From contig NZ_CP044230.1 of the NCBI RefSeq assembly GCF_008727815.1, positions 914,001 through 978,000 of the forward strand: 64,000 nt of DNA. The letters are read 5' to 3'. The notes beneath the pieces are model-generated. The model saw nothing but the letters and a program-made list of their open reading frames with translations, was not told the DNA's origin and did not search any database. Positions 20,500 to 37,404 of this stretch are shown here, in pieces. Positions within the stretch are counted from its first letter, which is position 1. Every line of letters starts with the position of its first letter. This DNA is from Streptococcus sp. LPB0220. Lineage in GTDB: Bacteria > Bacillota > Bacilli > Lactobacillales > Streptococcaceae. The translations under genes were made by a program, and so were the position numbers.

Positions 20500-21855
20500 A
20501 TGTTAAAGAAAAATGAAATTGTAACGGTTGAGATTGTCGATTTGACCCATGAAGGAGCAGGAGTGGCTAAGGTCGATGGCCTGGTCTTTTTTGTGGAGAA
20601 TGCCCTGCCAGGAGAAGTCATCCGCATGCGCGTGCTTAAGGTCAATAAGAAGATCGGCTACGGAAAAGTTGAAGAGTATATAGAGAAATCCCCTCACCGC
20701 AATGAAGAGCTAGACCTGGCTTACTTGCGAAGTGGTATTGCCGACTTAGGGCACCTGGCTTATCCGGAGCAGCTGAAATTCAAGGCCAAACAGGTCAAGG
20801 ATAGCCTCTACAAGATGGCAGGAATCTCTGATATCGAAGTCCCCTTGACCTTGGGGATGGACCATCCTGTCCAGTATCGTAACAAGGCCCAGGTCCCTGT
20901 CCGTCGTGTCAATGGTCAGGTGGAGACAGGTTTCTTTCGAAAGAACTCTCATGATTTGATGCCGATCGAAGACTTCTATATCCAAGATCCAGTCATTGAC
21001 CAAGTAGTCTTGGCACTTCGGGACTTGATTCGTCGATTTGACCTTAAGCCTTATGATGAAAAGGAACAATCAGGCTTGATTCGCAATCTGGTGGTCCGCC
21101 GAGGTCACCATTCAGGAGAAATCATGGTCATTTTGGTCACCACTCGTCCCAAGGTTTTCCGTGTGGACCAGTTGATCGAGCAGTTGATCAAGCAATTCCC
21201 AGCCATCAAATCCGTTATGCAAAATATCAACGACCAGAATACCAATGCTATTTTTGGGAAAGAATGGCGTACGCTTTATGGTCAGGATTACATTACCGAT
21301 CAAATGTTGGGCAATAGCTTCCAAATCTCTGGGCCAGCCTTTTACCAGGTCAATACAGAAATGGCAGAAAAGCTCTATCAGACAGCTATTGACTTTGCGG
21401 ATTTGAGAGCAGAGGATATCGTGATTGACGCCTACTCCGGAATTGGAACCATTGGCTTATCAGTTGCCAAGCATGTCAAGGAAGTCTATGGAGTTGAGGT
21501 CATCCCAGAAGCAGTGGAGAATAGCCAGAAGAATGCTAGTCTAAATGGCATCACCAATGCCCACTATGTCTGTGACACAGCTGAAAATGCTATGAAGAAT
21601 TGGCTCAAGGAAGGCATCCAACCAACCGCCATCCTAGTTGACCCACCACGCAAGGGCTTGACCGAAAGCTTTATCAAAGCAAGTGCCCAAACAGGCGCTG
21701 ATCGCATCGCCTATATCTCCTGTAACGTCGCCACCATGGCGCGTGATATCAAACTCTACCAAGAGTTGGGCTATGAATTGAAGAAAGTCCAGCCGGTGGA
21801 TTTGTTTCCACAAACACATCACGTGGAGTGTGTTGCTTTGCTCGTAAAAGCCTAG
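20500..21855 (+). CDS. rumA: 23S rRNA (uracil-C5)-methyltransferase RumA/RlmCD
   Basis: 451 residues. N-terminal TRAM domain (1-60), central insertion, C-terminal SAM methyltransferase domain with the DAYSGIGTIGL loop, DPPRKGL motif and the YISCN catalytic cysteine. Gram-positive members (RlmCD) methylate U747 and U1939 of 23S rRNA. The cysteines that bind the Fe-S cluster in E. coli RumA are absent (SGIADLGHLAY region). Its 3' end (HHVECVALLVKA-stop) is a known integration hotspot in streptococci, and copies of it recur downstream in this window. Confidence 0.95.
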   Translation: MLKKNEIVTVEIVDLTHEGAGVAKVDGLVFFVENALPGEVIRMRVLKVNKKIGYGKVEEYIEKSPHRNEELDLAYLRSGIADLGHLAYPEQLKFKAKQVKDSLYKMAGISDIEVPLTLGMDHPVQYRNKAQVPVRRVNGQVETGFFRKNSHDLMPIEDFYIQDPVIDQVVLALRDLIRRFDLKPYDEKEQSGLIRNLVVRRGHHSGEIMVILVTTRPKVFRVDQLIEQLIKQFPAIKSVMQNINDQNTNAIFGKEWRTLYGQDYITDQMLGNSFQISGPAFYQVNTEMAEKLYQTAIDFADLRAEDIVIDAYSGIGTIGLSVAKHVKEVYGVEVIPEAVENSQKNASLNGITNAHYVCDTAENAMKNWLKEGIQPTAILVDPPRKGLTESFIKASAQTGADRIAYISCNVATMARDIKLYQELGYELKKVQPVDLFPQTHHVECVALLVKA

Positions 21856-21871
21856 AAACCTTTGAATGAAA

Positions 21872-21913
21872 GGGAATACGAAAAGCCTTGATTGTAAAGG
21901 CTTTTCATATTCC
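21872..21913 (+). terminator. Terminator of rumA
   Basis: GGAATACGAAAAGCCTT ... AAGGCTTTTCATATTCC, a long near-perfect stem. Diverged copies occur at 26336 and 30886 behind copies of the rumA tail. Confidence 0.8.
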
Positions 21914-21923
21914 AATAAAGAAC

Positions 21924-21974
21924 TTGACATTAATAGTTACTTCCACTACAATAGAACTACATACCATTGGTATG
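21924..21974 (+). promoter_or_regulatory. tetR promoter with TetR operator O1
   Basis: TTGACA (21924-21929), 17-base spacer, TACAAT (21947-21952). The palindrome CATACC-ATT-GGTATG (21960-21974) starts at the expected +1. The same palindrome recurs twice upstream of the ABC genes, so this TetR probably represses itself. Confidence 0.85.
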
Positions 21975-21990
21975 ATAGAAAGGGACTAAA

Positions 21991-22620
21991 ATGGCAAGGA
22001 ATAGAAACTCACATGAAACTAGACAAAAAATACTAGAGGTCTCTAAAAATTTATTTTTAGAAAAAGGATTTGATAATACGTCAATACAAGATATCATAGA
22101 TGGCTTAGGTGGATTAACAAAAGGTGTTATCTATCATCATTTTGAGTCCAAATATGATATACTGCAAACGATCATTAGCGAAAATAATCAAGAAATTTTA
22201 AATTATAATTGGAGAGGAAATTCTGGATTAGAAAAGATACAAAATTCTTTGATGGACTCTTTCTCTAATTTTGAACACCAAAGGCTCGTTTACTCTGCCT
22301 CAATCATGCTAAGAAGTCCTCGTTTGTTAGGAGAGCAGTATTTAGGTCTATTTTCTGATTTTTTACCCGAAATTAGAGAAAAAGTTTACGAAGGAGTTGA
22401 AGATGGGTCTATTAAAACAGAATATCCAGAAGAGCTAGCAGATTTAATTGTTTTAACTCTAAATATTTGGATTGGTTTTCAAATTTCCGTCTTTTCATTA
22501 GAAGAATTAAAGCGCAAAATGAATTTCATTAAACTTACTTTTGAAGGTCTAGGGGTACAGTTAATTTCTGATGAAATGATGGAGGTGATTTTCAACTTAT
22601 TCGATCACTTAAAAAAATAG
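21991..22620 (+). CDS. TetR/AcrR family regulator
   Basis: 209 residues. The N-terminal helix-turn-helix of the TetR family (residues about 10-56, TSIQDIIDGLGGLTKGVIYHH) is followed by a divergent ligand domain. The promoter overlaps a CATACC-N3-GGTATG palindrome, and two more copies precede the downstream ABC genes, so it likely represses itself and the exporter. AT-rich and unlike the core codon use upstream. First gene inserted after rumA. Confidence 0.92.
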   Translation: MARNRNSHETRQKILEVSKNLFLEKGFDNTSIQDIIDGLGGLTKGVIYHHFESKYDILQTIISENNQEILNYNWRGNSGLEKIQNSLMDSFSNFEHQRLVYSASIMLRSPRLLGEQYLGLFSDFLPEIREKVYEGVEDGSIKTEYPEELADLIVLTLNIWIGFQISVFSLEELKRKMNFIKLTFEGLGVQLISDEMMEVIFNLFDHLKK

Positions 22621-22713
22621 TAAATAAGTCGTCGCATGTCATTCTTGTTAATACTAATTTCTATTTACGTATTATCAATTAAATAAATTATCTTACATAA
22701 TTTATAATTAAAA

Positions 22714-36258: not shown

Positions 36259-37058
36259 GGTTCTACCTCCTCAAAGGGATTTGTTCCAAGCCTTGAAAAA
36301 TAGACTTGTAAAGCAGGCCCTAAATAATCATTAACGATTTTTTGCTTTTCTTCCCAAGCGTTTGAGGCGGTATCGATATTCCCTATCTCCATCAACTTCG
36401 GAAGCATGCTCATATCACCATTTGTAAACTCCATAATCAAGCTCCAGTATTCTTGCACAACCTGTTGGCATTGTTCGCTTTCAGCTGGTACGTTTTCTTT
36501 CTGAAGCTCCACGATTTGATCACTTAGGCGGTTCAACCTATCCATAAAATCTTGCCCGCTTTTCTTGTCAAATCGACTGCGTATCTGGTCGAGCGTATCA
36601 TCATCAAAGCGCTTAATGAGAGAGTAGGAGTCATTCTTCATCTGTAGATTGACAATAATGTCTGCATACTTCTTAAAATTGACCGTCTGTATTTGTAAAA
36701 CTTCTGCCTTTAACTGCTCTATTGCGACTAAAGAATCCTTAAGTTGTTCAATATTTTTACGAAGAATATCTGCTTGCTCTGTAAGAGCATTGGCAACATC
36801 ATCAGGTGTTTTCAAAGAGATCAAACGCCCCTTTATATCCTTGAGAGAAAAGCCTAATGATTTTAATGATAGAATCTGATGGAGTAGCACTATATCTTTA
36901 TCGGTATAAAGCCTGCGACCTCCCTCACTTTCTGCCGATGGGGAAAGTAGCCCCTCTTTATCGTAATATTGTAGAGTACGGATGGTAATGCCCATTTTCT
37001 TAGCAAGTTCCCCCACTGTCATAAATCCTTCCGGAATTGCTCTATATTTAGCCATCAT
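36255..37058 (-). CDS. MerR family regulator
   Basis: 267 residues. N-terminal winged helix with MTVGELAKKMGITIRTLQYY and the GGRRLYTDKD wing, a coiled-coil dimerisation helix (about 90-125) and a TipAS-like C-terminal ligand domain. The ATG at 37058 lies 6 bases after GGAGG; the in-frame ATG at 37073 overlaps that site and was rejected. Its promoter has the 19-base spacer and dyad typical of MerR activators. Confidence 0.92.
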   Translation of the reverse strand: MMAKYRAIPEGFMTVGELAKKMGITIRTLQYYDKEGLLSPSAESEGGRRLYTDKDIVLLHQILSLKSLGFSLKDIKGRLISLKTPDDVANALTEQADILRKNIEQLKDSLVAIEQLKAEVLQIQTVNFKKYADIIVNLQMKNDSYSLIKRFDDDTLDQIRSRFDKKSGQDFMDRLNRLSDQIVELQKENVPAESEQCQQVVQEYWSLIMEFTNGDMSMLPKLMEIGNIDTASNAWEEKQKIVNDYLGPALQVYFSRLGTNPFEEVEP

Positions 37059-37077
37059 TACCCACCTCCTCATACCT

Positions 37078-37108
37078 ATTATACATCATGACGTAAGGTC
37101 ATAAACAA
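37078..37108 (-). promoter_or_regulatory. MerR-type promoter and operator
   Basis: On the minus strand: TTGTTT (37108-37103), a 19-base spacer, TATAAT (37083-37078). The spacer contains the dyad ATGAC-CTTAC-GTCAT (37102-37088). An overlong spacer with a central dyad is how MerR proteins activate by DNA untwisting. Confidence 0.85.
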
Positions 37109-37293
37109 GGAGTTTTAATAAAATTTAAACTGTAAATCTTTTAGCATTAATGAAGAATCTCATAAAAAATATAGACTTGATGAATTGGTGAGCTTGTTTT
37201 CTATTTCAAAAGGTTATTTGGTCCAATAATAAATATCTGATATGTGAGTGGAAACGTGTTATAATTGAGGATGAGACAAGAGGAGGTAAGCTG

Positions 37294-37335
37294 GTGAAAT
37301 TTTTAGCAATCAATCCTATTTAGTAAAAAGAATGC
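37294..37335 (+). pseudogene. Remnant of an RDD protein gene
   Basis: GTG then codons VKFLAINPI followed by a stop and decayed sequence. Both it and the upstream bases (TTATAAT, GAGGATGAGACAAGAGG) match the start of the RDD gene at 50584 (MKMLAINPISFKK). Confidence 0.75.
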
Positions 37336-37350
37336 TTGAATCTCTATCCT

Positions 37351-37404
37351 CACGTGTTGAGTATATTAGTTTGCTAAAAAACTATCTTCTATCTAAATAT
37401 TGAA
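37351..37404 (+). repeat. rumA-tail repeat, copy F
   Basis: CACGTGTTGAG then codons at 37356-37404 for VEYISLLKNYLLSKY-stop. It aligns with VECVSLLVK of copy C. The element end in front is not clear, so this is the weakest copy. Confidence 0.45.

What the first reader, a model, noticed from the sequence alone, without database searches (positions are those of the whole stretch)
21811..37404. Serial accretion at the rumA 3' end: six ghost copies of the gene tail partition 15.5 kb into cargo modules
The last codons of rumA (HVECVALLVKA-stop) recur downstream in one orientation as HVECVALLVKA-stop (26276), VEAVSLLVRSEASAK-stop (28120), AECVTLLFRSETAK (28284), VECVSLLVKRS-stop (30716), HVASVVLLVKHKNL-stop (31144) and VEYISLLKNY (37356). 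Four are preceded by the same non-rumA end sequence (TTTCGTTCT-(A/G)TA(A/G)TATAGA). Copies B and C also carry the rumA terminator. In copy B, from the GAG codon onward, the differences from rumA are synonymous. Established: ICEs and related elements integrate at the rumA 3' end in streptococci and rebuild the gene end. Inference: repeated insertion of small elements, each leaving an attR-like scar, with the oldest farthest out (E and F most decayed). No recombinase gene is in the modules, so they may have moved in trans or lost it.
Basis: partly seen in the sequence, partly recalled or inferred. Interest (0 to 1): 0.9.

Follow-up and report, generated by a model that had tools for sequence, protein, structure and literature searches.

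The report
Phage-type gene cassette array behind rumA
Downstream of the rumA gene in an oral streptococcus sits a row of small gene cassettes that carry no mobility gene of their own but end in the attachment half-sites of a known family of phages, and the Mega macrolide-resistance element, whose way of moving was unknown, looks like one of these cassettes.

Summary
A site-specific crossover, inferred at a CA dinucleotide, cuts rumA near its 3' end; everything 3' of it, C-terminal codons included, comes with the inserted element. A 34-bp site profile finds 253 sites on the rumA strand and 0 on the other in 1.64 Mb of streptococcal DNA, and left and right halves assort freely. Window cassettes recur in other streptococci, and empty sites exist: in four genomes rumA runs directly into the block behind the first window cassette. 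None of 172 delimited modules holds a full-length large serine recombinase (5 hold fragments), and the host genome has none. The right half-site is that of twin-serine-recombinase prophages of the phi-m46.1 family, which suggests movement in trans. Mega (mef/msr, 5.5 kb, no transposition genes) fits the same plan: nine near-identical copies with mostly unrelated flanks and the phi-m46.1 right half-site. Copy F (37356) is not significant; a strong boundary at 32924 was missed; blocks continue beyond 37.4 kb. Against: in five other genomes the body of the first cassette has no att site at its left edge. Action in trans is inferred, not shown.

The parts
20500..21855 (+). [quoted passage not shown] the platform gene
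   Evidence: ORF; Pfam tRNA_U5-meth_tr and TRAM
21815..21848 (+). att site 1 (rumA half + T1-type tail), inferred crossover CA at 21820-21821, 43.6 bits (training site)
   Evidence: tail close to that of the phi-m46.1 left junction
21820..26275 (+). cassette A: TetR regulator, ABC-2 permease, ABC ATPase, ABC exporter; no recombinase; T1 left end, P-family right end
   Evidence: empty sites in 4 genomes. Its body from about 21844-21880 on recurs in 5 genomes (G101, G025, G134, G094, G177), but there with other DNA and no recognised att site at the left edge
26242..26260 (+). right half-site (P family) TTTCGTTCTGTAGTATAGA of cassette A
26271..26304 (+). att site 2, 36.8 bits (training site); its tail and terminator are the live rumA end in G086
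26276..28116 (+). cassette B: CAAX-type protease-like membrane protein (26456-27208) and a protein without family (27297-27788)
   Evidence: second copy in L041 G082, flanks 0.59 identical on both sides
28112..28145 (+). att site 3, 15.0 bits, T3-type tail; diverged P-family half-site in front (28075-28119)
28120..28283 (+). mini-unit (164 bp here, about 124 bp elsewhere), related to folded units of other loci; ends at the second tail 28284
28117..30712 (+). cassette C: AAC(6') group E acetyltransferase-like (28401-28847), APH-like kinase (28965-29846), HEAT-repeat / DNA-alkylation-repair-like protein (29977-30594)
   Evidence: same cassette in L037 G002 directly behind rumA and in L040 G077, the latter with another left tail
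30679..30697 (+). right half-site TTTCGTTCTATAATATAGA of cassette C
30708..30741 (+). att site 4, 29.6 bits, T2-type tail (VSLLVKRS); the core reads TA here instead of CA
30713..31143 (+). cassette D, 431 bp, no gene
   Evidence: same unit in L046 G097, whose flanks are similar too
31112..31130 (+). right half-site with 1 mismatch
31139..31172 (+). att site 5, 29.2 bits, decayed tail
31332..32819 (+). streptosactin-type exporter GggC homolog (inside segment 31144-32923)
   Evidence: NCBIfam NF050039, 869 bits against cut-off 750
32924..34640 (+). next block (alpha/beta hydrolase, ADP-ribosylglycohydrolase); no recognised att half at its left boundary in the window
   Evidence: 34 genomes start at 32924, 0 span; in some other genomes a tail stands there; Pfam
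34640..37126 (.). block with ABC-2 permease, ABC ATPase and MerR regulator (genes on - strand)
37407..38128 (+). block with a conserved gene without family; candidate tail F just upstream is not significant

Best explanation
The region is an array of small mobile cassettes built by serial site-specific insertion at one point in the rumA 3' end. A typical cassette starts with a replacement rumA C-terminal tail and ends with a P-type half-site. The cassettes carry no intact recombinase; the half-site they share is the right end of phi-m46.1-family prophages, so the twin serine recombinases of such phages (or relatives) most likely excise and insert them in trans. Mega is one such cassette. Shown by sequence: sites, reassortment at the crossover, recurrence with other neighbours, empty sites, absence of a full-length recombinase, identity of the half-site with phage ends. 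Inferred: action in trans, circular intermediates, origin of some cassettes by deletion of prophages.
For: Profile: 257 hits (253 merged sites, 162 of them not training positions) on the rumA strand and 0 on the other at 8 bits or more in 1.64 Mb. Left and right halves form clusters that combine freely; bases at -2 and beyond follow the left family, and from -1 on the right family at most positions, which maps the crossover to CA. 14 of 79 module clusters (300 bp or more) occur in more than one genome. Mega-like cassette: 9 genomes, 5508-5509 bp, ungapped identity at least 0.9996 in the 28 pairs of equal length, 150 bp outside left 0.58 (0.44-0.94) and right 0.57 (0.48-0.93), random pairs 0.50; Mef(A) and Msr models above cut-off in the copy tested, L038. 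Empty sites for cassette A in 4 genomes and for A+B in 1. 5 of 172 modules hold a serine-recombinase match, all on short ORFs of about 78-282 aa; own genome 0 for PF07508 and 0 for the 462-aa protein, while 58 of 197 genus genomes match it at E 1e-60. phi-m46.1 has the T1 tail at its left and the Mega right half-site at its right junction. Of 13 further twin-recombinase flanks, judged by eye, 12 have a P-family half (some diverged) as the first site downstream and 1 as the second. Published: phi-m46.1 circularises and integrates at the rum 3' end over an 18-bp core (PMC4288039, abstract and passages). Mega lacks transposition genes and has target TTTCCNCAA (PMC5030221, passages), which is the rumA half of the site.
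Against: No excision, circle or trans reaction is shown for any recombinase-free cassette. In five genomes the body of cassette A has no recognised att site at its left edge, so its left end may have been made by deletion. Positions +1, +3 and +11 still follow the left family more than the right. The 20-kb views cannot show large elements, so the share of recombinase-free modules is biased upward, and 26 of 86 loci were fetched because they hold the motif. Some boundaries (27184, 28904/28935, 34640, 38124) have no recognised att site, and ICE-type single serine integrases also use rumA, so more than one enzyme may act. Relaxases were not searched, and tyrosine recombinases in other genomes' modules only by a crude motif. 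Identity with pneumococcal Mega rests on size, genes and target, not on an alignment to a named Mega record.
Confidence: 0.75

Rival explanations
1. Cassettes were made once by site-specific insertion but now spread and reshuffle by natural transformation and homologous recombination across rumA and shared cassettes; no recombinase acts in trans today.
For: Streptococci are competent (established); some neighbours travel together (cassette D with similar flanks in G097; C13 with identical flanks); Chancey 2015 favours transformation for Mega spread among pneumococci (PMC4321634, passages).
Against: The linkage of bases to the left or right family switches at the CA, and nine Mega-like copies share both ends while their flanks mostly do not match; homologous exchange would carry flanking sequence and scatter breakpoints.
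Confidence: 0.35
2. The modules are leftovers of full prophages, ICEs or IMEs that lost their recombinase by deletion (CIME-like remnants), each inserted by its own enzyme and now immobile.
For: C-terminal remnants of the 462-aa recombinase lie within 10 kb downstream of rumA on its strand in 7 genomes (G065, G092, G103, G118, G154, G157, G195; positions); cassette A has the phi-m46.1-like end pair in the window but a variable left edge elsewhere, as deletion would leave.
Against: Near-identical recombinase-free cassettes occur in several genomes with different neighbours, so they moved after losing, or without ever having, the gene.
Confidence: 0.3
3. The single serine integrases of rumA-type ICEs and IMEs, not the phage pair, move the cassettes.
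For: Such integrases use the same rumA point and exchange 3' ends (Ambroset 2016, PMC4701971, passages); a 583-aa example ends at an att site in L052.
Against: Their right half is the integrase gene's own 3' end, different from the P family that 68 of 107 modules of 300 bp or more carry.
Confidence: 0.15
4. Chance or an ordinary dispersed repeat resembling the rumA tail.
For: Tails are short (about 30-85 bp).
Against: 253 sites on the rumA strand and 0 on the other; 26 of 197 genomes hold the exact motif and none the control; the 3 own-genome hits at up to 2 mismatches lie in the window.
Confidence: 0.01

Closest known systems
Prophage phi-m46.1 and relatives (twin serine recombinases, rum 3' end)
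   Same: Same target, same crossover core, T1-type left junction, P-family right half-site
   Different: Window cassettes are 0.4-4.5 kb, with no phage genes recognised and no recombinase
Mega (macrolide efflux genetic assembly)
   Same: Same plan: no transposition gene, target TTTCCNCAA, about 5.51 kb; the cassette found here in 9 genomes encodes Mef(A) and Msr in the copy tested
   Different: The window cassettes carry other cargo; the passages seen here give no recombinase for Mega
SCC elements, pseudo-SCC and the enterococcal cassette chromosome (ECC)
   Same: Elements at the 3' end of an rRNA methyltransferase gene with a serine recombinase pair (ECC from PMC6222049 passages); cassettes without recombinase (pseudo-SCC, recalled)
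   Different: Other target gene (rumA, not rlmH), other att core, recombinases far below the Ccr cut-offs and carried by phages
CIMEs and tandem accretion of ICEs
   Same: att-flanked, no recombinase, accretion; tandem mobile elements at rum reported in S. suis (PMC5053989, passages)
   Different: Many small cassettes in rows; phage-type rather than ICE-type ends
Integrons
   Same: Works like one in outline: rows of gene cassettes, entry at one end, recombinase not in the cassette (integron features recalled)
   Different: No tyrosine recombinase in the window; serine-type core; rumA reading frame restored at the junction

Membership tests
phi-m46.1-type rum element (attachment system) | Insertion point at the published 18-bp core in the rum 3' end | tested here: met
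   Profile consensus GCATCACGTCGAGTGTGT agrees with the attB sequences seen in PMC4288039 passages
phi-m46.1-type rum element (attachment system) | P-family right half-site | tested here: met
   Three window sites with at most 1 mismatch to the motif; phi-m46.1 has it, and 13 of 13 further twin-recombinase flanks by eye, 12 as first site
phi-m46.1-type rum element (attachment system) | Encodes the twin serine recombinases and phage genes | tested here: not met
   Own genome 0 for PF07508 and for the 462-aa protein
SCC / cassette chromosome | Integration at rlmH 3' end | tested here: not met
   Target is rumA
SCC / cassette chromosome | CcrA/CcrB/CcrC recombinase | tested here: not met
   Related phage and IME recombinases score 151, 144 and 137 bits against a CcrB cut-off of 900
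CIME (att-flanked remnant without recombinase or transfer genes) | attL and attR flank the module and no recombinase is inside | tested here: met
   Window cassettes A-D
CIME (att-flanked remnant without recombinase or transfer genes) | Moved in cis by an adjacent ICE | not testable with these tools
   needs mating experiments
Integron | Tyrosine integron integrase next to the array | tested here: not met
   6 PF00589 matches in the own genome, none inside the window
Mega (the 9-genome cassette, not the window cassettes) | mef and msr(D)/mel genes, about 5.5 kb, no transposition gene | tested here: met
   Length and ends in 9 copies, genes in one copy, no serine-recombinase match; transposase families not searched separately
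Mega (the 9-genome cassette, not the window cassettes) | Sequence identity to a named Mega record | not tested
   no named Mega record was aligned

The most novel reading that the evidence does not exclude
Streptococci share an open gene-capture platform at rumA: non-autonomous cassettes (transporters, acetyltransferases, defence and resistance genes), each with its own rumA C-terminal tail, are inserted and released in trans by recombinases of visiting phages, an integron-like system built on serine recombination, with Mega as its best-known member and with folded 82- and 124-bp units as functional parts of the attachment sites.
Probability: 0.45. Interest if true: 0.88.

Novelty: new variant of a known kind. 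Interest (0 to 1): 0.77.

Why it matters
Mega, a main carrier of macrolide resistance in pneumococci, was noted in 2001 to lack transposition genes, and a 2016 review still left its way of moving open (PMC5030221, passages). If it is one cassette of a rumA array system served by phage recombinases, that question becomes directly testable, and the turnover of genes behind rumA (including pneumococcal pathogenicity island 1, whose left end is rumA; PMC4321634, passages) gets a common mechanism. It would also add a serine-recombinase cassette system beside SCC and ECC.

Tried and rejected
Tail divergence as an age scale: rejected as a general rule, because tail families are shared between genomes and nearly unlinked to rumA divergence. 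A tyrosine integrase as the local agent: none lies in the window. GT as crossover dinucleotide: replaced by CA after the linkage test. A loose serine-recombinase motif first flagged a 293-aa protein; it is the APH-like kinase, and a profile search replaced the motif. Site F: not significant. A candidate at 43516 has the score of the best reverse-strand hit and was dropped. Rfam: nothing at gathering score in window 20-40 kb; one weak match to a snoRNA family in a 701-base stretch of L036. IMG/VR scan for the motif: one contig, no site behind the motif, taken as chance. Cargo tally: only the 25 commonest of 120 Pfam families were listed, for 123 proteins chosen from 308 ORFs, so rare families are not excluded. 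Structure prediction, fold search and the protein database search were not used.
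Full report
OBSERVATION. rumA (20500-21855) ends HVECVALLVKA*. A DNA search of the whole own genome (2.13 Mb, one contig) with the rumA end finds it again at window 26276-26360 (91%, E 3e-25) and 30850-30911 (83%, E 2e-10). 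The end motif TTTCGTTCTRTARTATAGA occurs in the own genome three times with up to 2 mismatches, all in the window. In 197 genomes of the genus (drawn evenly from a larger group) it occurs exactly in 26 and its reversed control in none. The host is close to S. parasanguinis/S. australis: its rumA is 97-98% identical to G097, G101 and G024, whose contig lengths equal records of those species.

SITE MODEL. I fetched 26 loci around the motif (chosen for it, so biased) and 60 rumA 3' flanks (chosen by rumA similarity, a few because of a phage), in all 86 loci, 1.64 Mb. A 34-bp profile built from 73 distinct sites (rumA ends and motif sites; from the window only 21823 and 26279) gives 257 hits, 253 after merging neighbours, on the rumA strand and 0 on the other at 8 bits or more; 162 of the 253 are not training positions. 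In the window it gives 21823, 26279, 28120, 30716 and 31147; the best reverse-strand score is 1.6. Of 74 genomes with a rumA locus, 57 have at least one more site within the fetched stretch (up to 20 kb), 16 have one site and 1 none.

CROSSOVER. 258 sites (window included) cluster into left halves (rumA half 73 sites, P family 69 sites in 47 genomes, a rumA-like half behind an 82-bp unit 39 sites, and others) and right halves, and these combine freely. With families defined away from the centre, bases at -12 to -2 follow the left family (z 16 to 38; right family z 1 to 9). At -1 the right family leads (11 against 6), and it leads at most positions after that; exceptions are +1 (left 14, right 6), +3 and +11. 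In nine copies of the Mega-like cassette the base at -1 is T in 9 of 9 at the left end and T, C or A (5, 3, 1) at the right end. Both place the exchange at CA (-3,-2), though site 30716 reads TA there. So elements bring their own rumA tail. Tail types among rumA genes are nearly independent of rumA divergence: at 90-95% identity of the adjoining 250 bp, 365 of 482 pairs differ in type (0.76; random 0.75); at 85-90% 583 of 824; among close pairs fewer differ (95-98%: 9 of 17; 98% or more: 1 of 3). Ambroset 2016 had described such 3'-end exchange for ICEs with a single serine integrase (PMC4701971, passages).

MODULES AND RECURRENCE. Neighbouring sites delimit 172 modules in 63 genomes, 107 of 300 bp or more. 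Serine-recombinase profile matches lie inside 5 of 172, all on ORFs of about 78-282 aa. Because each view is at most 20 kb, large elements are not sampled. The 107 larger modules fall into 79 clusters, 14 of them present in more than one genome. Window cassette 28120-30716 (AAC(6')-like, APH-like, HEAT) also sits directly behind rumA in G002 and elsewhere in G077, there with another left tail; 26279-28120 recurs in G082 with unrelated flanks; 30716-31147 recurs in G097 with similar flanks. Against the simple reading: cluster C13 also keeps its flanks, and the body of cassette A (from 21844-21880 to its right half-site) recurs in G101, G025, G134, G094 and G177 with other DNA and no recognised att site at the left edge; its right end is precise, its left end is not.

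EMPTY SITES. 233 occupied/empty pairs were found among 253 sites at 80% identity of 120-bp flanks (the listing was cut, and rumA is the left flank in most rows shown). For cassette A, rumA is joined directly to the window's next block in G149, G086, G179 and G028; over 300 bp that block is 0.889, 0.983, 0.902 and 0.924 identical to the window, while the window sequence left of 26279 is unrelated to rumA (0.46-0.49). What is a ghost in the window is thus the live rumA end in G086. For A+B the empty form is in G002. These are other species' genomes, not strains of the same species.

HALF-SITE OWNER. Prophage-like loci with two adjacent serine recombinases (413 and 462 aa) carry the motif downstream of the pair; in 8 genomes where the listing puts both on one contig (G010, G013, G014, G049, G068, G072, G099, G124) the pair lies 45-55 kb downstream of rumA on its strand. 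In phi-m46.1 (FM864213) the left junction has the T1 tail VECVALLVKA and the right end TTTCGTCTATTAGTATAGAAGAAAGCTCTCAGCACAC followed by the next tail. Of 13 more twin-recombinase flanks, judged by eye, 12 have a P-family half (diverged in G136, G009 and G033) at the first site downstream (1.5-7.8 kb) and one (G159) at the second. 58 of 197 genomes match the 462-aa protein at E 1e-60, 18 of them full-length at 70% identity or more; the own genome has none, and none of PF07508, a search that rings in 3 of 14 control genomes. These recombinases score far below the Ccr cut-offs. Transduction work shows phi-m46.1 as circle and prophage at the rum 3' end in several species, but found no transfer to S. 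pneumoniae, S. oralis or S. salivarius (PMC4288039, abstract and passages).

MEGA. Nine genomes hold a 5384-5385-bp module plus a 124-bp unit (5508-5509 bp). The modules are at least 0.9996 identical in the 28 pairs of equal length; 150 bp outside left average 0.58 (0.44-0.94) and outside right 0.57 (0.48-0.93), random 0.50 (95th percentile 0.54); the high values include copies that share rumA or a neighbour. The copy in L038 encodes Mef(A) (888 bits, cut-off 675) and an Msr protein (783, cut-off 680). Mega-1 is given as 5,511 bp (PMC4321634, passages), lacks transposition genes and has target TTTCCNCAA about 6 bp upstream (PMC5030221, passages), which fits rumA TTTCCNCAA-ACGCAT-CA. Its right half-site is that of phi-m46.1. 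No paper in the held library has both 'macrolide efflux genetic assembly' and 'serine recombinase'; other searches listed no paper that I saw describing recombinase-free rumA cassettes, but only listings and passages were read.

EXTENT. Alignment ends of the fetched loci on the window mark 26283, 28117, 30721, 32924 (34 genomes start, 0 span), 34632-34647, 37407 (14 start, 2 span), 38124, 43.3 and 46.5 kb.

MECHANISM. Because an incoming left end encodes a rumA-like tail, the new junction at rumA is again attB-like and the inner junctions are attP-like; this would explain serial entry at rumA. This step, action in trans and circular forms are inference. Seven genomes carry C-terminal remnants of the 462-aa recombinase within 10 kb downstream of rumA (positions), which suggests that some cassettes began as deleted prophages; the variable left edge of cassette A fits that too.

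Noticed in passing
L111:9601-9724; L036:13889-14012; relative at window 28120-28283: A folded unit of about 124 bp (164 bp in the window) between two tails; 22 aligned copies (window copy not among them) give 10 consensus pairs, 4 with changes on both sides (CTG/CAG against GAC/GTC), some broken cells, and three single copies fold better than shuffles (z -2.8 to -4.1). Role unknown; no Rfam family found in one copy searched.
   Followed up: partly
many loci, e.g. L111:275-357, L052 oriented 2799-2965: An 82-bp unit (tail, hairpin terminator, rumA-like half-site), sometimes in tandem; it would move the target site outside rumA.
   Followed up: partly
window 27114-27188 and 27829-27903: 75-bp direct repeat (97%) flanking the 27297-27788 gene; alignments of many genomes start or end there, so that gene seems a separate insertion inside cassette B without an att site.
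   Followed up: no
window 31332-32819: Streptosactin exporter gggC homolog inside the array; partner genes were not searched.
   Followed up: no
L129 (Lachnoanaerobaculum), L150 (Gemella), L151 (Granulicatella): Extended P-family half-sites outside Streptococcus; three other non-streptococcal matches look like chance.
   Followed up: partly
L052 oriented 1052-2803, L044 oriented 4890-6742: Element whose single serine integrase gene runs into the rumA tail, as described for rumA ICEs; the L044 copy is interrupted by a stop.
   Followed up: no
L058 (G166:C1:1817701-1837700): A second P-family half-site and a tail-like site (36.2 bits) in a stretch without rumA.
   Followed up: no
123 proteins of alignment A1: Cargo across arrays, commonest families: ABC transporters, acetyltransferases, two-component systems, FecCD permeases, Abi_2 and GmrSD-type proteins (PADLOC matches, not examined one by one).
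   Followed up: partly
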